Assembly: GCA_001508155.1 (NCBI GenBank)
Contig: LGFI01000001.1
Coordinates: 62,001-126,000, forward strand
Reading direction: 5' to 3'
From: Acetothermia bacterium 64_32
GTDB taxonomy: Bacteria > Bipolaricaulota > Bipolaricaulia > Bipolaricaulales > Bipolaricaulaceae
Length of the DNA stretch: 64,000 nt
The notes beneath the pieces were generated by a model. The model was not told the DNA's origin. It searched no databases and saw only the letters and a program-made list of their open reading frames with translations. The number at the start of each line of letters is the position of its first letter. Position 1 is the first letter of the stretch. A program made the position numbers and the translations under genes. Shown piece by piece: positions 37,688 to 43,854 of this stretch.

Positions 37688-38174
37688 GGTCAGGGTGGGG
37701 CTGGGGATCGACTTCCACAGGCTGGTTGTGGGGAGGAAGCTCATCCTGGGGGGGGTGGAGGTTCCTTTTGAGCTTGGGCTTTTGGGGCATTCGGATGGGG
37801 ATGTGGTTTTGCATGCCATCTGTGATGCTTTACTGGGGGCGGCTGCCTTGGGGGACATCGGCCAGCATTTCCCCCCGGGGGATCCGGAATACAAAGGCAT
37901 CTCCTCCCTGCGGCTCCTTTCGCGGGTGAGGTTTTTTTTGGAGGAGGAGGGGTATGAGCCGGTGCAGGTGGACTGCGTGGTGGTTGCCCAGGCGCCCCGG
38001 CTTGCCCCTTATATCCCCCGGATGCGGGAGCGGATAGCGGAGACGTTGGGGGTGGGGGAGGTTTCGATCAAGGCCACCACCCCGGAGGGGATGGGGCCGC
38101 TTGGGGGAGGGGAGGGGATTGCTGCCTGGGCGGTGGCCCTCATCCGCCCTAAACGTCGTAAACGTCGCACATAA
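37680..38174 (+). CDS. ispF: 2-C-methyl-D-erythritol 2,4-cyclodiphosphate synthase
   Basis: A 164-residue enzyme of the non-mevalonate isoprenoid pathway. GLGIDFHRLVVGRKLILGGVEVP holds the metal-binding Asp and His, LGHSDGDVVLHAICDALLGAAALGDIG and IKATTPEGMGPLGGGEGIAAWAVALI complete the family pattern. The normal protein should end about at AVALI. Here it continues RPKRRKRRT, encoded by the first hairpin repeat of the adjacent cluster; the TAA stop (38172-38174) is in the loop of that hairpin. So a repeat insertion has given the enzyme a new basic tail. An in-frame GTG at 37671 is an alternative start. Confidence 0.93.
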   Translation: MGEVRVGLGIDFHRLVVGRKLILGGVEVPFELGLLGHSDGDVVLHAICDALLGAAALGDIGQHFPPGDPEYKGISSLRLLSRVRFFLEEEGYEPVQVDCVVVAQAPRLAPYIPRMRERIAETLGVGEVSIKATTPEGMGPLGGGEGIAAWAVALIRPKRRKRRT

Positions 38175-38376
38175 AGTGCGACTAAACGTCGCACATAAAG
38201 TGCGACGCTACCCAAACCCTACTAAACTAAACGTCGCACACAAGGTGCGACGCTACCTAGGGTAGAGGTAGCGTCGGGCCTTGTGCCCGACGAAAAATAT
38301 ATGGTAGCGTCGGGCTTTACGCCCGACGAAAATATACGGTAGAAAATATACGGTAGCGTCGGGGCTTGTCCCCGAC
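38151..38376. repeat. REP-like hairpin cluster 1 (six copies)
   Basis: Six hairpins. Type A (GTCGCAC / GTGCGAC with loop ATAAA or ACAAG): 38164-38182, 38188-38206 and 38233-38251; the last two are followed by GCTACC. Type B (GTCGGGC / GCCCGAC): 38273-38291 and 38309-38327. Type C (GTCGGGG / CCCCGAC): 38358-38376. Types B and C are preceded by GGTAGC. Seen on the minus strand, type A also reads GGTAGC followed by the stem, so all belong to one family with different arms. The cluster begins inside ispF and ends 42 bases before the transposase gene. Confidence 0.9.
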
Positions 38377-38418
38377 GAGAATACACGACGTGACGTTCGG
38401 TAGTCGGACGATAGAAAA

Positions 38419-38910
38419 ATGGATGAAATGAAAGGTAGGGCGAGGTACAAGACCTTTGGCAAAAGGCGCTCGCTGCGGCTCCCTGGTTACGATTACTCCT
38501 CCCCCAGGCCCGTTCATCTTGTCATCGGAACCTATGGGAAAAGGCCGATCCTCACCGGCCGGCTGGCGATGGCGATGGTGGGATGTTTGAAGGAGACCGC
38601 GGAACGGTGTGAGGTTGTGCTCTTTGCCTTCTGTGTTATGCCGGATCATGTGCATCTGCTTGTGAGCTCGCGGGGTGGGGTGGACCTGGTGACGTTCGTG
38701 CAGAGATTTAAGGGTAAAAGCACCCGTATCTTCTGGGAGCTGGGTGGCAGGGGGAAGCTTTGGCAGCGGGGATTTTATGATCATGTGCTGCGCAAGGAGG
38801 AGGCGGTGGAGGACGTGGCCGCTTATGTCCTCAACAACCCGGTGAGGAAGGGGCTGGCAAGGGATTTCAGGGACTACCACTACTCAGGCTCGTCCGTAAT
38901 CGAATGGTGA
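38419..38910 (+). CDS. REP-associated tyrosine transposase (RAYT, Y1/IS200-like)
   Basis: A 163-residue HUH single-strand transposase. The metal-binding HUH motif is MPDHVHLLVS (His77 and His79); the C-terminal block WQRGFYDHVLRKEE, AAYVLNNPVRKGLARDF includes the catalytic Tyr region and the YxxNNP motif that marks RAYT rather than IS200 proteins. RAYTs bind the tetranucleotide GTAG next to REP hairpins. Exactly such hairpins flank this gene on both sides (38151-38376 and 38934-39094). It appears intact. No terminal inverted repeats of a classical IS are seen, as expected for a domesticated RAYT. Confidence 0.9.
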   Translation: MDEMKGRARYKTFGKRRSLRLPGYDYSSPRPVHLVIGTYGKRPILTGRLAMAMVGCLKETAERCEVVLFAFCVMPDHVHLLVSSRGGVDLVTFVQRFKGKSTRIFWELGGRGKLWQRGFYDHVLRKEEAVEDVAAYVLNNPVRKGLARDFRDYHYSGSSVIEW

Positions 38911-38933
38911 TCGTTCAAATAAAACGATGAAAA

Positions 38934-39094
38934 GGTAGCGTCGGGCTTTATGCCCGACGAAAATATACGGTTAAGAAAATATACGGTTAAACGTCGCACA
39001 TAAAGTGCGACGCTACCAAGGGTTACCAAGGGTGAAGAGGTAGAGGTAGCGTCGGGCCTTGCGCCCGACGGTAGCGTCGGGGCTTGTCCCCGAC
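38934..39094. repeat. REP-like hairpin cluster 2 (four copies)
   Basis: Type B at 38940-38958 (tag GGTAGC at 38934), type A at 38993-39011 followed by GCTACC, type B at 39051-39069 (tag 39045-39050) and type C at 39076-39094 (tag 39070-39075). The linker between the type A copy and the next type B copy reads AAGGGTTACCAAGGGTGAAG and then AGGTAGAGGTAGC, which is similar to linkers in cluster 3. Confidence 0.9.
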
Positions 39095-39095
39095 G

Positions 39096-39127
39096 AAAAA
39101 ACCCGGGGGCGGCGAGGCCGCCCCCGG
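39096..39127 (-). terminator. Rho-independent terminator of the PorV-like gene
   Basis: On the minus strand CCGGGGGCGGC and GCCGCCCCCGG (39103-39113 and 39117-39127, 11-bp stem, 3-base loop) are followed by six T (39096-39101). It lies 28 bases after the stop of the PorV-like gene and directly abuts the last REP copy. Confidence 0.85.
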
Positions 39128-39154
39128 TGGGCACAAGAAACCTTGGGCTGGTCG

Positions 39155-40069
39155 CTATTCGGTAGGCTGTCCTTCCTCAGCCGGCGGAGCCAGAAGCTCC
39201 CCCAAAAGGAAGGTGGCAGAAAGCACCAGCGACTCACCCGGATCAGACTGTAGCACGTAAGCCGCGTCTATGGAAAGGTCACCAACCGCAAGCCCGGCGC
39301 CAACGGTGAAGTAGTAGTCGGCGAAGTCCGCCTCGGGGAACACCACCCCGGCGCGCACCGCCAGGTTCTCCACCAGCACGAACTCAAGCCCGGCCTTGGC
39401 CCCGGAGAAGGCAAAATCCATCCCGGCAAAGTCCACATCGGCCGCCAGGGTCATCGCCCCGTCCAGGAGCTTGGCCCCAAAGCCGGCCGTGTACATGGGC
39501 TCCACCGTCTGGTCCCACAACGAGGTGCCACCCACGTCCTTGGCCACGATCCCAATGGCAAGCTCATCGGTGAGCGGGAAAAGAAGCCCGATGTCGAAGC
39601 CGAACCCGGTGGCCGAGTCCTCCTCGATGGTCTCAGAATAGTACTTTACGTTAACGCCCACGCTTCCGAAGTCGGCGATGTTGACCCCCACCGTGCCCAG
39701 GTACAGGCTGGCGTTGTACATCCCCGGGTTGGCCTCGTCGTTTGCCACCGCGTTGGCCCAACCAAGGCCGATCGCATACCCCTCGAAGGTGAACCCGCCC
39801 GAGATGTACTGGTAGGAAACGCCACCGAAGTCACCGGTGGAGAAGCGGTTGGACGTTGCCCCGCCGATCCACGGCTGGGCGAAGGTCAGCCCGGCGGGGT
39901 TCCATAGGGCCCCCGTCGCGTCGTTCGCCAGGGCGCAGTACGCACCCCCCATCCCCAGGGCCTTCGCCCCATGGCCCCCTTGGAATATGATCGACCCCAC
40001 ATACTCCTGCGGGAAGGCTGCCACGGCAAGGGCCCCCACGAGCAAGCTCGCTACGATTATCCTTTTCAT
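39155..40069 (-). CDS. PorV/PorQ-family outer-membrane beta-barrel protein
   Basis: A 304-residue exported protein with a signal peptide (about residues 1-19) and the family landmark GAKALGMGGAYCALANDATGALWNPAGLT (about residues 34-62). The rest alternates Gly/aromatic strands ending in VLSATFLLGE, typical of an outer-membrane barrel. In type IX secretion, PorV binds the C-terminal domain of cargo and shuttles it to the attachment complex. The neighbouring upstream gene encodes a large exported protein with such a C-terminal domain. GGAGGTAAGGCGAAG precedes the ATG. Whether a full type IX system exists cannot be judged here. Confidence 0.75.
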   Translation of the reverse strand: MKRIIVASLLVGALAVAAFPQEYVGSIIFQGGHGAKALGMGGAYCALANDATGALWNPAGLTFAQPWIGGATSNRFSTGDFGGVSYQYISGGFTFEGYAIGLGWANAVANDEANPGMYNASLYLGTVGVNIADFGSVGVNVKYYSETIEEDSATGFGFDIGLLFPLTDELAIGIVAKDVGGTSLWDQTVEPMYTAGFGAKLLDGAMTLAADVDFAGMDFAFSGAKAGLEFVLVENLAVRAGVVFPEADFADYYFTVGAGLAVGDLSIDAAYVLQSDPGESLVLSATFLLGELLAPPAEEGQPTE

Positions 40070-40108
40070 CTTCGCCTTACCTCCTCACGCACCCTATGTC
40101 CAAGCCCT

Positions 40109-40134
40109 GGGGGTGGGCCAGGCGGCCCACCCCC
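40109..40134. other. Intercistronic hairpin between the surface-protein gene and the PorV-like gene
   Basis: GGGGGTGGGCC (40109-40119), loop AGGC, GGCCCACCCCC (40124-40134): an 11-bp perfect stem 12 bases after the stop of the large gene. No T-run follows in the gene direction, so it may mark an mRNA 3' end or allow partial readthrough into the PorV-like gene. Confidence 0.55.
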
Positions 40135-40145
40135 AAAAGCCCTTT

Positions 40146-43073
40146 CTACCGCTTGATGTAAACGAAGCCGCGGAAGGTCCAGACCTGGTCCGCACCCTCC
40201 ACCACGGCCACGTAGATGTACGCGCCGTTCCTCAAGGACTCACCGGTCCAGGACACCCGGTCGGTGTCGCTCCCGGAGACCTCCGCCACCTTCTTCCCGA
40301 GGAGGTCGTAGATGGTGACGGCGATCGAGTCGGCCACCGCGCCGGAGGGCTCCGCCTGGATCCTGAACTCGGTGGAGGTGGAGAACGGGTTCGGCACCAC
40401 CGAGATCCCGGTCACATCCGAGAGCTCGGCCGCCACCACCTGAGCGGTGGCATCGTCGGTCCGGTCCGGATCGGCCGGGTCGGTGTAGGTGGCGGTGATG
40501 GTCCCCAGCGCCACGTCCTCCGGGAGCGTGTAGCTCACCCGGAACTGGCTGCCGGAGAGGGCCGGGATCGAGTTCCAGGACTCGAGCACGGCACCGGTGG
40601 CGTCCTTGAGCACCAGGACGGCCCCCTCCTCGGAGGAGATCTCATCGTACCCCTCGTAGACCACGTCGGTCACGGTGATGGTCACCACGTCACCCGGGTT
40701 GTACTGGGCCGCGTCGAAGGCCACGGTGGGCGGGCTAGGAGGCGTGACGCCGGCTGCGCCGCCCTCGGTCACCTTGATGGAGATGATGGCGATGTCGGAG
40801 TGGTTGGAGGGGTCCTGGTAGAAGGCCATGATGGTGTCGCCGGCCTGGGAGCCCAGGTTCCCATCACCCGGGTGAGCGGAGTCAGCCACCAAGACACAGG
40901 TGGTGGACCGGAACACCCCGGTGTTCACCCCGGTCTCCCTTAGGTCCAGCCGCTCCCAGGTCCCCCGCTGCGCGTTCCACATGAACACCTTCACGGTGGC
41001 CGGGATGTCCGTAATGGAGAGCACGTCAAGGTCAACCCCACCGGAAATAGCCCCGTCGGGGGTCATTAGATCGGCGGCAGCTGTTACATTGTTCTCTGCA
41101 GTGGCTGTGAGATCCCAGATCGGAGCCGAGTCCTCTTCCTCGTCGTTCCCATTTGCTGCGGTGTCAGCACCTTCAGTCTGATCGGCGTCCTTGTTCCAAC
41201 CGCCGAAGACCTGCTCGCGGAGGAGTGGGTTCTCGTTCTGATCGGGGTCGGTCACCTCGATCCCGAGCTCCCCACCGAGCGGCACCTCACCGGTGATGGG
41301 GGTGCCGGAACAGGTGACGAACCGCATCTTGTGCTCGCCGGTCGTCACGTAGTTCTCACCGCAACCGCGGCTGGTGGGCATGGAGATCGAGAACACCTGG
41401 GTGTCGTACACCTTCACCAGGTCGAACGACACGTCCCACGGCTGATACCGGGAAGCGTCCGTATCGATCACCGGCGGGAAGAGATCATCGTTCGGGTTCC
41501 CGTCGCCTAGGGCGTTCAGGGACTCCTGCGTATAGACCACGGAGTTGTAGCGGGCGTAGATGGTGTCCTCGTTGAACGCCTCGAAGGTCCAGGAGTCGAA
41601 AACGAGCTGATAGCCGCCCACCGCGTCCCAAACCGGCAGGAGCGGCATCCCGGAAAGGGAGGCGAAGATGCCGGAGTTGGCCGACACCTCGTCGATCTCC
41701 CAGTACTCGGAGTCGTCCTCGCCATGCGGGTCGCACAGGTGCACCACCACCGAGTCGCAGCAGCAGGCCTCGATGTTGGCGTCGGCGTCGTAGACCCGCA
41801 CGTAGAGGCCGGTGTGTCCGATCTTCACCTGGGTTACGGGGACGCCGTTTGCGTCGGTGAGGTAGGTCTCAGAATGCGGCCGGTCGCCCACCACGGCGGT
41901 GGCCAGGGTGAAGTCGTCGAAGTCGTTCGGATCGAGGTAGTAGAAGGCGATCGTGGTGCCGGGCACGAACCGATCCCCGGTCACGTCCGGGTCCAGGCCC
42001 AGGGCCTCCATCAGGTTCTCCAGGTTCCCGAAGTTGTACTCGAACACCCCGGAGGAAACGTCCGTCTCATGGGCGAAGAACACCACCGGGAGCACATTGG
42101 TAGTAGCAAACCACCCAGGGTATTCGATGTAGCGCTCGGGGTTGTAGATGTTGTACCACTGGATGTAGTTCCCCCACACGTCCCCGGAAGCATCGGTGCC
42201 GCCCCACTTCTTGAGCATGCAGAAGTTGGTGGCGGAGTTGGTCTGCACAGGGTTCCAGCTTCCCGGGTTGATGATGAGGAAGAACGGGACGTAGTCCACC
42301 TTGTCGCAGTCCAGGTTCTCGTCCGGGTCGTTGATGGTCACGGTGATGTTCTCGCACACCCCCGCACAACCGTAGGCGAGCTGAGTAGGGCTCACGGTCA
42401 GGGTGGCCACGGTGTCGACGATCTTCACCTGATCCTGGTCGATGTTCCGCTCGTCGGTGTCGTCGGCCACGATCAAGACCAGCGTGTCCATGTTCTCGAA
42501 CCGACCAACCACAGGGGCTGTGCCTGCCAGTTCGGGATAAGTCGGCCCGTAATTAGCGTAGTCAACCCTCGCGACTTCCTTGAGCTCAGGAAGGGCGTCT
42601 GTTTCACCGTCAGCATCAGGATCTGTGTCCTCATCCAAGTAAATCCAGTCCCCTTCCGCCCACAGGGAATCCCCCAAAATATGGGTCCACTGATACTGTT
42701 GGTCCGGGCCTGTGGGTGGGAGCGCAGCCGGCGCATCCCAATAACGGTCGCCGACCTTGATCGCCTGCTTGTTGCCAGCGTCATCCACCCAGAAGTAGAT
42801 GCCGCTTCCGGCCTCAAACTCCCGGAATACCTCGTCGGTTTCCTCAATGTAAGCCCCGGTCTTAAAGTCGAAGATCACAAGGTCGGCGGTGAACTCGTCG
42901 ATGCCGCAGGCGCCCTTCTCCGGGTCGTTCACCACCACGTAGAACCGGCTGCCCTCCCAGATCCCCTGGATCTTGTTCCCCGACGCGTCGGCAAAGTACG
43001 CGTCAAAGCCAAACGCCGTGGCAGATATCGCCACGGCCGCCAAAAGCCCGATCACTAGTGCTTTGCTCCTCAA
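40146..43073 (-). CDS. Large secreted repeat protein with FlgD/T9SS-like C-terminal domain, candidate surface-layer protein
   Basis: A protein of about 975 residues. The start is TTG at 43073, 7 bases after AAAGGAGG, giving a standard signal peptide (ALVIGLLAAVAISATAFG). An ATG at 43130 also has AAAGGAGG but would add 19 residues before the signal. About five Ig-like modules carry an Asp-rich motif: VVVNDPEKG, VTINDPDENLD, RVYDADANIE, EVTDPDQNEN, TVTDVVYEG. Several end in TGVF/SGIF and GDTI-x-AFYxDP blocks. Unusual Cys clusters occur (ACCCDS, CAGVC). The last 90 residues (NPFSTSTEFRI, IYDLLGKKVAEV, NGAYIYVAVV) match FlgD/T9SS type A sorting-like domains. Tandem promoters and a long leader suggest very high expression. 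Confidence 0.75.
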   Translation of the reverse strand: MRSKALVIGLLAAVAISATAFGFDAYFADASGNKIQGIWEGSRFYVVVNDPEKGACGIDEFTADLVIFDFKTGAYIEETDEVFREFEAGSGIYFWVDDAGNKQAIKVGDRYWDAPAALPPTGPDQQYQWTHILGDSLWAEGDWIYLDEDTDPDADGETDALPELKEVARVDYANYGPTYPELAGTAPVVGRFENMDTLVLIVADDTDERNIDQDQVKIVDTVATLTVSPTQLAYGCAGVCENITVTINDPDENLDCDKVDYVPFFLIINPGSWNPVQTNSATNFCMLKKWGGTDASGDVWGNYIQWYNIYNPERYIEYPGWFATTNVLPVVFFAHETDVSSGVFEYNFGNLENLMEALGLDPDVTGDRFVPGTTIAFYYLDPNDFDDFTLATAVVGDRPHSETYLTDANGVPVTQVKIGHTGLYVRVYDADANIEACCCDSVVVHLCDPHGEDDSEYWEIDEVSANSGIFASLSGMPLLPVWDAVGGYQLVFDSWTFEAFNEDTIYARYNSVVYTQESLNALGDGNPNDDLFPPVIDTDASRYQPWDVSFDLVKVYDTQVFSISMPTSRGCGENYVTTGEHKMRFVTCSGTPITGEVPLGGELGIEVTDPDQNENPLLREQVFGGWNKDADQTEGADTAANGNDEEEDSAPIWDLTATAENNVTAAADLMTPDGAISGGVDLDVLSITDIPATVKVFMWNAQRGTWERLDLRETGVNTGVFRSTTCVLVADSAHPGDGNLGSQAGDTIMAFYQDPSNHSDIAIISIKVTEGGAAGVTPPSPPTVAFDAAQYNPGDVVTITVTDVVYEGYDEISSEEGAVLVLKDATGAVLESWNSIPALSGSQFRVSYTLPEDVALGTITATYTDPADPDRTDDATAQVVAAELSDVTGISVVPNPFSTSTEFRIQAEPSGAVADSIAVTIYDLLGKKVAEVSGSDTDRVSWTGESLRNGAYIYVAVVEGADQVWTFRGFVYIKR

Positions 43074-43243
43074 CGTCCTACCTCCTTTCACTCCGGGATC
43101 ACTCGACCCCACGGTCCTTGTGCCCTGCATCTCCCCCTCCTTTCGGTGCTACGATCACCCATCACCTCCATCTTTACCCCTTTCGCAGGGGCCGGGATGA
43201 GGGCTCCCCCTCGCCCTCGGTGAGGAGCGATAACGCAATGTGC

Positions 43244-43272
43244 ATCCTACCACATCCCTCCTCCCCGGTCAA
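43244..43272 (-). promoter_or_regulatory. Proximal promoter P2 of the surface-protein gene
   Basis: TTGACC (43267-43272), 17 bases, TAGGAT (43244-43249) on the minus strand; five and four matches to consensus. Transcription would start near 43237, leaving a leader of about 165 bases to the TTG start. Confidence 0.55.
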
Positions 43273-43320
43273 GACGCCAAGGCGGTTTCGCCCCTCGGAC
43301 CCCGGGAGCAGTTGGCCCGT

Positions 43321-43349
43321 ATGTTAGCCTTCCCAAAGCCCCAAGTCAA
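43321..43349 (-). promoter_or_regulatory. Distal promoter P1 of the surface-protein gene
   Basis: TTGACT (43344-43349), 17 bases, TAACAT (43321-43326) on the minus strand. It lies 77 bases upstream of P2 and gives a leader of about 240 bases. Between P1 and the repeat cluster (43350-43470) nothing else was recognised. Confidence 0.55.
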
Positions 43350-43470
43350 CTTCACACCGGGCACAAACGCCCCACGAGATGCCCGCTTGGATTAAACAAA
43401 CCCCGGGGGACACCCCCTAGGCGCACCGTCCCCCCCGCCCCGGACTTTCGTCCCCACCCGACGATAAAAC

Positions 43471-43854
43471 GTCGCACACAAGGTGCGACTAAACGTCTAA
43501 ACGTCGCACATAAAGTGCGACGCTACCTAGGGTGAAACCCAGGGTGAAATGAGGTAGAAATGAGGTAGCGTCGGGCCTTGTGCCCGACGATAAACCCGGT
43601 AGCGTCGGGCTTTATGCCCGACGCCAAATGATAAAACGTCGCACACAAAACCAAACGTCGCACATAAAGTGCGACCAAACAAACGTCGCAAACGTCGCAC
43701 ATAAAGTGCGACGCTACCAAGGTGGAGAGGTAGAGGTAGTAGAGGTAGCGTCGGGGCTTGTCCCCGACGAAAGAAAGAGCGTTACCAAGGTGGAGAGGTA
43801 GAGGTAGCGTCGGGCCTTGTGCCCGACGAAAGAGCGTCGGGCCTTGTGCCCGAC
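43471..43854. repeat. REP-like hairpin cluster 3 (nine copies plus two half copies)
   Basis: Type A at 43471-43489, 43503-43521, 43657-43675 and 43694-43712; type B at 43570-43588, 43604-43622, 43809-43827 and 43836-43854; type C at 43750-43768. Half copies of type A are at 43638-43648 and 43685-43690. Tags GCTACC (after A) or GGTAGC (before B and C) accompany six of the nine. Linkers repeat AAGGTGGAGAGGTAGAGGTAG. The cluster ends 16 bases before the stop of the helicase gene, on the far side of the surface-protein gene from the transposase. Confidence 0.9.

What the first reader, a model, noticed from the sequence alone, without database searches (positions are those of the whole stretch)
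38151..43854. A complete REP/RAYT system with two hairpin families and compensating stem changes
Nineteen complete 19-base hairpins in three clusters share one plan: GGTAGC tag, then GTCG-NNN-loop-NNN-CGAC. Arms differ as CAC/GTG, GGC/GCC or GGG/CCC, always with the matching partner, so base pairing has been conserved while sequence changed. GTAG is the tetranucleotide that known RAYT proteins recognise beside REP stems, and an intact RAYT lies between clusters 1 and 2. Type A always sits on the minus strand and types B and C on the plus strand, giving head-to-head pairs like BIMEs. I do not know this repeat family from any described genome.
Basis: partly seen in the sequence, partly recalled or inferred. 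Interest (0 to 1): 0.75.

Follow-up and report, generated by a model that had tools for sequence, protein, structure and literature searches.

The report
REP hairpins with their transposase
This stretch of an uncultured bacterium's genome (candidate phylum Bipolaricaulota) holds a small transposase gene surrounded by the short tagged hairpin repeats it probably recognises, which is a known kind of bacterial repeat system found here in a phylum not listed among its known hosts, with clear evolutionary evidence for the hairpin shape.

Summary
There are 19 perfect hairpins in three clusters (8 type A on minus; 8 type B and 3 type C on plus), and an intact RAYT lies between clusters 1 and 2. One correction: only 15 of 19 carry the GGTAGC tag. 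The genome holds about 21 tagged copies; 15 are here and six are dispersed. Of these six, the five examined lie between genes or just after 23S rRNA.

The genome is a Bipolaricaulota MAG (inferred). The repeats occur in 49 of 100 genomes of its class (up to 94 copies) and in all 12 encoding the full-length RAYT ortholog. They flank 11 of 12 orthologs but only 2 of 24 other Y1 transposases. Repeat and RAYT divergence correlate (Mantel r 0.67).

New here: (1) loop positions 1 and 4 covary as strongly as stem pairs, so the hairpin is probably an 8-bp stem, one bulged pyrimidine, a ninth pair and a TY loop; (2) the A/B strand asymmetry is conserved across genomes, like E. coli Y and Z units; (3) tagless copies accumulate mainly 3' of full repeats.

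Best reading: a REPtron, a new member of a known kind in a phylum absent from the surveys I read. Cleavage and mobilisation were not tested.

The parts
38419..38910 (+). RAYT / TnpA-REP gene, 163 aa, HUH motif DHVH (H77, H79), WQ (115-116), catalytic Y136 in YVLNNP
   Evidence: NCBIfam REP_Tyr_transpos 92.8 bits, cut-off 80; Pfam Y1_Tnp 64.1 bits; invariant residues in 20 relatives; predicted fold best matches 4ER8, TnpA-REP bound to a REP hairpin
38151..38400 (.). cluster 1: 3 type A, 2 type B, 1 type C hairpins plus truncated copies; overlaps the 3' end of ispF
38934..39095 (.). cluster 2: B, A, B, C hairpins between the convergent RAYT and porV-like genes
43466..43854 (.). cluster 3: 4 type A, 4 type B, 1 type C hairpins plus truncated copies, downstream of the lhr-type helicase gene
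38164..38182 (-). type A hairpin, no tag
38187..38212 (-). type A hairpin (CAC/GTG, loop TTTAT) with GGTAGC tag
38232..38257 (-). type A hairpin (loop CTTGT) with tag
38267..38292 (+). type B hairpin (GGC/GCC, loop CTTGT) with tag
38303..38328 (+). type B hairpin (loop TTTAC) with tag
38352..38377 (+). type C hairpin (GGG/CCC, loop CTTGT) with tag
38934..38959 (+). type B hairpin (loop TTTAT) with tag, 23 bases after the RAYT stop codon
38992..39017 (-). type A hairpin (loop TTTAT) with tag
39045..39070 (+). type B hairpin (loop CTTGC) with tag
39070..39095 (+). type C hairpin with tag, abutting the previous one
43471..43489 (-). type A hairpin, no tag
43502..43527 (-). type A hairpin with tag
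43564..43589 (+). type B hairpin with tag
43598..43623 (+). type B hairpin with tag
43657..43675 (-). type A hairpin, no tag
43693..43718 (-). type A hairpin with tag
43744..43769 (+). type C hairpin with tag
43803..43828 (+). type B hairpin with tag
43836..43854 (+). type B hairpin, tag replaced by AAAGAGC

Best explanation
This is a REPtron: a vertically kept, single-copy REP-associated tyrosine (HUH, Y1) transposase with its cognate GTAG-tagged REP family, arranged as inverted A/B pairs (BIME/REPIN-like). Proposed working: when a strand is exposed, for example on the lagging-strand template, each hairpin folds on its own strand. RAYT binds the GTAG foot and the stem, probably reading a bulged pyrimidine near the apex. 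It then cuts nearby DNA through Tyr136 and rejoins strands, occasionally copying or moving REP units within the genome. Types A and B/C are the two opposite-strand members of the pair, equivalent in role to E. coli Y and Z units. SHOWN: anatomy, covariation, association with RAYT, co-divergence, dispersed copies and A/B strand coupling. INFERRED: binding, cleavage, mobilisation, vertical inheritance and any host benefit.
For: Repeats: 19 hairpins with 3/3 paired arms; tag enrichment 15 against 0.08 expected. Protein: REP_Tyr_transpos above its cut-off. H77, H79, W115, Q116, D121, H122, R125, Y136 and N140 are invariant in 20 relatives, and W, Q, H, R, Y and N align with TnpA-REP 4ER8, with D121 opposite E. 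The AlphaFold model (pLDDT 89) has 4ER8 as best PDB fold hit. Association: all 12 genomes of the class with a full-length ortholog carry 8-94 repeats, against a median of 0 in the other 88 (Mann-Whitney P 1.5e-6). Repeats flank 11 of 12 orthologs but 2 of 24 other Y1 genes (Fisher P 1.4e-6). RAYT relatives in Zixibacteria and Anaerolineales have the same GTAG-CGTC(G) hairpins. Co-divergence: Mantel r 0.67, 0 of 9,999 permutations. Structure: pairs 1-11, 2-10, 3-9 and loop 1:4 covary in 143 elements; loop 1:4 is 139/143 Watson-Crick (permutation maximum 93); 18 of 18 hairpins from divergent RAYT loci keep it. Orientation: opposite-strand neighbours AB 28, AA 6, BB 1; same-strand AA 3, BB 13, AB 0 (Fisher P 3e-8).
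Against: Copy number in this genome is low (about 21), and 71% of copies sit at the locus, so efficient dispersal is not evident. 23 of 88 class genomes have at least 5 repeats without a detected ortholog. A profile search found no ortholog in most of those tested, although incomplete assemblies explain at least one (G029: a RAYT C-terminus at a contig end next to REPs). No empty-site comparison was possible: the congeneric G001 contig ends just after ispF. No cleavage-site motif was identified in the flanks. Related elements are not independent, so the covariation and Fisher P values overstate significance.
Confidence: 0.93

Rival explanations
1. A relic: RAYT and REPs are inherited together but no longer move. 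The clusters here have grown mainly by replication slippage at hairpins, and the dispersed copies are old. (This is a variant of the best explanation in which activity is lost; the two overlap in identity.)
For: 15 of about 21 tagged copies are at the locus; many tandem and truncated duplications with one end inside a hairpin; the close relative G001 has one repeat and no RAYT.
Against: The RAYT frame and all catalytic positions are intact. Stems stay paired in every copy here although arms and loops differ. Related genomes carry up to 94 dispersed copies.
Confidence: 0.3
2. The hairpins act mainly as RNA elements (3'-end stabilisers or terminators) and the RAYT neighbourhood is incidental.
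For: Clusters and dispersed copies lie at gene ends: ispF, RAYT/porV, lhr, between convergent genes near clpP, after 23S rRNA (L018).
Against: No Rfam match up to E 0.1. The unpaired GTAG tag is kept and RNA function would not need it. Association is with this RAYT clade specifically, and repeats co-diverge with it. A secondary host role is not excluded.
Confidence: 0.06
3. An ordinary IS200/IS605 insertion sequence with subterminal hairpins.
For: Same Y1 HUH fold.
Against: The REP-specific family model scores above its cut-off while the IS200 model is below its own. The gene is single copy, and repeats occur singly and in pairs without the gene.
Confidence: 0.02

Closest known systems
E. coli REPtron (TnpA-REP/YafM with Y, Z1, Z2 palindromic units; BIME)
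   Same: GTAG foot, HUH-Y1 protein (4ER8 is the best fold match), gene flanked by inverted REPs, distinct REP types on opposite strands, irregularity in the stem
   Different: Short 25-nt REP with an 8-bp perfect lower stem and a single-base apical bulge instead of a mid-stem 2x2 mismatch; 18% identity over the fold match; few copies
GTAG REP superfamily of Di Nocera et al. 2013 (PMC3733652)
   Same: Unpaired GTAG at one end, 6-9 bp stems, subfamilies with compensated stem changes, paired and clustered copies
   Different: The text lists Proteobacteria, Cyanobacteria, Chloroflexi and the PVC group as hosts; Bipolaricaulota and Zixibacteria are not listed. The CGTC here is inside the stem, so this is not a CGTC-tagged REP
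'Long canonical' REPs and TnpA-Y1 subclasses 2.7 / 2.5 (PMC6006769)
   Same: 7-20 bp basal stem, bulge of 1-3 nt, extra stem of at least 1 bp; motifs [ND]HVH, WQ, YI[LR][NQ]NP close to DHVH, WQ, YVLNNP
   Different: Shorter protein than the 2.7 median (163 vs 213 aa); subclass not assigned by their HMMs
Marinomonas REPtron Mb (PMC8266576)
   Same: There too two 'loop' bases (T12, A15) behave as a pair
   Different: 5-bp stem separated from GTAG by 2 bases

Membership tests
GTAG-tagged REP | unpaired GTAG within 0-2 nt of a 7-20 bp, G+C-rich stem | tested here: met
   15 of 19 in the window, 8-bp stem directly after GTAG
GTAG-tagged REP | multi-copy, mostly extragenic | tested here: met
   about 21 copies genome-wide; clusters and five examined dispersed copies are intergenic or just after 23S rRNA, but cluster 1 overlaps the last codons of ispF
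GTAG-tagged REP | high copy number (often >100; typical rather than defining) | tested here: not met
   21 here, up to 94 in relatives; PMC2817692 lists families with similarly few copies, so this does not exclude membership
RAYT / TnpA-REP | HUH motif and nucleophilic tyrosine of Y1 transposases | tested here: met
   H77, H79 and Y136 invariant, aligned with 4ER8
RAYT / TnpA-REP | RAYT-specific sequence features | tested here: met
   NCBIfam equivalog REP_Tyr_transpos 92.8 bits against cut-off 80; IS200 model 49.3 against cut-off 55; residues equivalent to GTAG-contacting Q95 and R104 conserved
RAYT / TnpA-REP | cuts and rejoins its cognate REP on one strand | not testable with these tools
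   needs purified protein
REPtron | rayt gene flanked by inverted cognate REPs, low gene copy number | tested here: met
   clusters 1 and 2 flank the gene; one copy plus two distant Y1 genes without REPs
REPtron | REP and RAYT co-diverge | tested here: met
   Mantel r 0.67, 0 of 9,999 permutations
BIME / REPIN | REPs in alternating orientation as pairs found as units | tested here: inconclusive
   alternating A/B pairs at the locus and in relatives; dispersed copies in this genome are single or in direct orientation
IS200/IS605 insertion sequence | gene plus ends transposing as a multi-copy unit | tested here: not met
   single-copy gene, repeats present without it
CGTC-tagged REP | unpaired CGTC tag | tested here: not met
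   CGTC forms part of the paired stem
TnpA-Y1 subclass 2.7 | key motifs and subclass HMM | tested here: inconclusive
   motifs nearly match (PMC6006769 Table 1); the HMM was not available

The most novel reading that the evidence does not exclude
The A and B hairpins are functionally different ends, like left and right ends of a transposon, that RAYT must pair. The asymmetry (B on the RAYT sense strand, A on the other) is old and kept in most Bipolaricaulota loci. Tagless copies 3' of full repeats would be footprints of RAYT cutting and rejoining within a hairpin, a stepwise amplification route for REPs.
Probability: 0.15. Interest if true: 0.6.

Novelty: new member of a known kind. Interest (0 to 1): 0.36.

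Why it matters
It puts a REP/RAYT system in a candidate phylum absent from the surveys I could read. The relatives provide a ready comparative set (about 1,000 repeats in 100 genomes) in which hairpin recognition features can be read from covariation. The inferred apical bulge and the conserved A/B asymmetry give specific, testable predictions about how RAYTs recognise REPs, a question still open outside E. coli, Stenotrophomonas and Marinomonas.

Tried and rejected
CGTC-tagged REP: rejected, because CGTC is in the stem. Rfam RNA family: no match up to E 0.1. Conserved cleavage dinucleotide in the flanks (E. coli uses CT): no clear position-specific signal in 43 A and 46 B contexts. Empty-site comparison downstream of ispF: the closest relatives' contigs end there or have unrelated sequence. 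Loosening the own-genome pattern to 3 mismatches gave counts below its reversed control (138 against 218), so only exact or near-exact matches were used. Energy folding does not show the ninth pair, because the model does not allow 2-nt loops; the claim rests on covariation only. Literature search for Bipolaricaulota plus palindromic repeats: no paper.

Full report
What is there. The window contains exactly 19 hairpins of the form GTCG-NNN-5nt-NNN-CGAC, all between 38164 and 43854 and all with fully paired variable arms. Fifteen are preceded by GGTAGC, against 0.08 expected by chance. Eight are type A (CAC/GTG) on the minus strand; eight type B (GGC/GCC) and three type C (GGG/CCC) are on the plus strand. 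Cluster 1 lies at the 3' end of ispF. Cluster 2 lies between the ends of the RAYT gene and a porV-like gene. Cluster 3 lies downstream of an lhr-type helicase gene.

Host. The window is part of a 1.81-Mb, 33-contig assembly. Its nearest searchable relatives have contigs of the same lengths as records titled 'Candidatus Bipolaricaulota bacterium' (for example G025:C81 and JAGGWU010000181.1, both 10,815 bases). I infer that this genome is from the same phylum.

The protein. ORF 38419-38910 passes the NCBIfam model for REP-associated tyrosine transposases (92.8 bits, cut-off 80) and stays below the IS200 cut-off. In 20 relatives the HUH histidines, Tyr136, Asn140, Trp115-Gln116, Asp121, His122 and Arg125 are invariant. 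Their counterparts in E. coli TnpA-REP align, with Asp121 opposite a glutamate; PMC6006769 and PMC8266576 give residues of this region as contacting GTAG. The predicted structure (mean pLDDT 89) is closest to 4ER8, TnpA-REP bound to a REP hairpin.

Genome-wide distribution. About 21 well-paired tagged copies exist in the assembly: 15 here, and the rest at C1:189973, C1:205079, C6:14448, C15:16085 and two at C31:44.7 kb. The five I examined lie between genes or just after what reads as the 3' end of 23S rRNA (L016-L019). In 197 sampled genomes the pattern is common only in this class. 49 of the 100 class genomes (G000-G099) have it, with 1,018 copies in total and up to 94 in one genome; genomes outside the class are at the level of the reversed-pattern control.

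Association with RAYT. All 12 genomes with a full-length ortholog have 8 to 94 repeats; the median of the other 88 is zero. Within 1.5 kb, repeats flank 11 of 12 orthologs but only 2 of 24 genes of other Y1 transposases, mostly of about 290 aa, including the two others in this genome. The exception (L034) has only about 120 bases of sequence on one side. RAYT relatives in Zixibacteria and Anaerolineales have the same hairpin plan, and more distant relatives have GTAG hairpins with other stems. Repeat divergence follows RAYT divergence (Mantel r 0.67, none of 9,999 permutations). Repeats without a detected ortholog occur in 23 class genomes with at least 5 copies. One of these (G029) has a RAYT C-terminus cut by a contig end directly beside REPs, so some cases are assembly gaps; others may be real losses.

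Hairpin structure. In 143 distinct elements the variable arm pairs covary. So do the first and fourth bases of the supposed 5-base loop: 139 of 143 are Watson-Crick, the permutation maximum is 93, and the mutual information equals that of the stem pairs. In RAYT loci with quite different stems the same relation holds in 18 of 18 hairpins, 17 as C:G. The simplest reading is an 8-bp (or 7-bp) stem, a single unpaired pyrimidine on the 3' side, one more pair and a 2-3 nt loop. This fits the 'long' REP class of PMC6006769. It also recalls the unpaired bases read by TnpA of IS608, ISDra2 and E. coli REPs, and the loop pair in the Marinomonas REP (PMC8266576). Caveat: elements share ancestry, so the permutation result overstates the evidence, but both loop types occur with nearly all arm types.

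A/B asymmetry. Among neighbours within 150 bp in non-redundant loci, opposite-strand pairs are AB 28, AA 6, BB 1; same-strand pairs are AA 3, BB 13, AB 0. In Bipolaricaulota RAYT loci of this family B-type repeats are on the RAYT sense strand and A-type on the other in most cases; L055, L056 and L059 differ. This is the organisation of E. coli Y and Z units, which flank its own rayt gene (PMC2817692, PMC6006769).

Truncated copies. Next to full repeats there are copies lacking the tag. They lie downstream (3') in 11 of 93 cases and upstream in 2 (one-sided P 0.011). L054 has the unit reiterated at least three times. They look like tandem duplications with one end inside the hairpin. Slippage at a hairpin is the simplest cause; a RAYT cut-and-join product is possible.

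Verdict. By nearly every sequence-level criterion that I could test, the system is a REPtron; the shortfall is its modest copy number. Activity is inferred. The novelty is the host phylum, the repeat consensus and the comparative detail, not the kind of system.

Noticed in passing
38151-38174: The ispF reading frame ends in repeat sequence: its last 7 residues (KRRKRRT) and stop codon come from the hairpin cluster, whereas relatives' IspF end differently.
   Followed up: partly
38149-38206, 43490-43500, 43630-43700, 43829-43854; also L016, L017, L054, L149: Tagless, truncated tandem copies sit mainly 3' of full repeats (11 downstream against 2 upstream of 93).
   Followed up: partly
39155-43130: PorV/PorQ-like protein and a 994-aa secreted protein with a weak T9SS C-terminal sorting domain match (24.7 bits, cut-off 23) side by side, suggesting a type IX-like secretion route in this Bipolaricaulota genome.
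   Followed up: no
L018:1502-1526 (G000:C15:16085): A repeat lies directly after what reads as the 3' end of the 23S rRNA gene.
   Followed up: no
L022 and L023 (G000:C1:174017, C32:2445): Two other Y1 transposase genes (open frames about 290-320 aa) in the same genome have no such repeats within 1.5 kb; the same longer family is widespread in the class.
   Followed up: partly
G029:C34:2-100 (L213): An assembly breaks inside a RAYT gene next to REPs, so RAYT absence in draft genomes is unreliable.
   Followed up: partly
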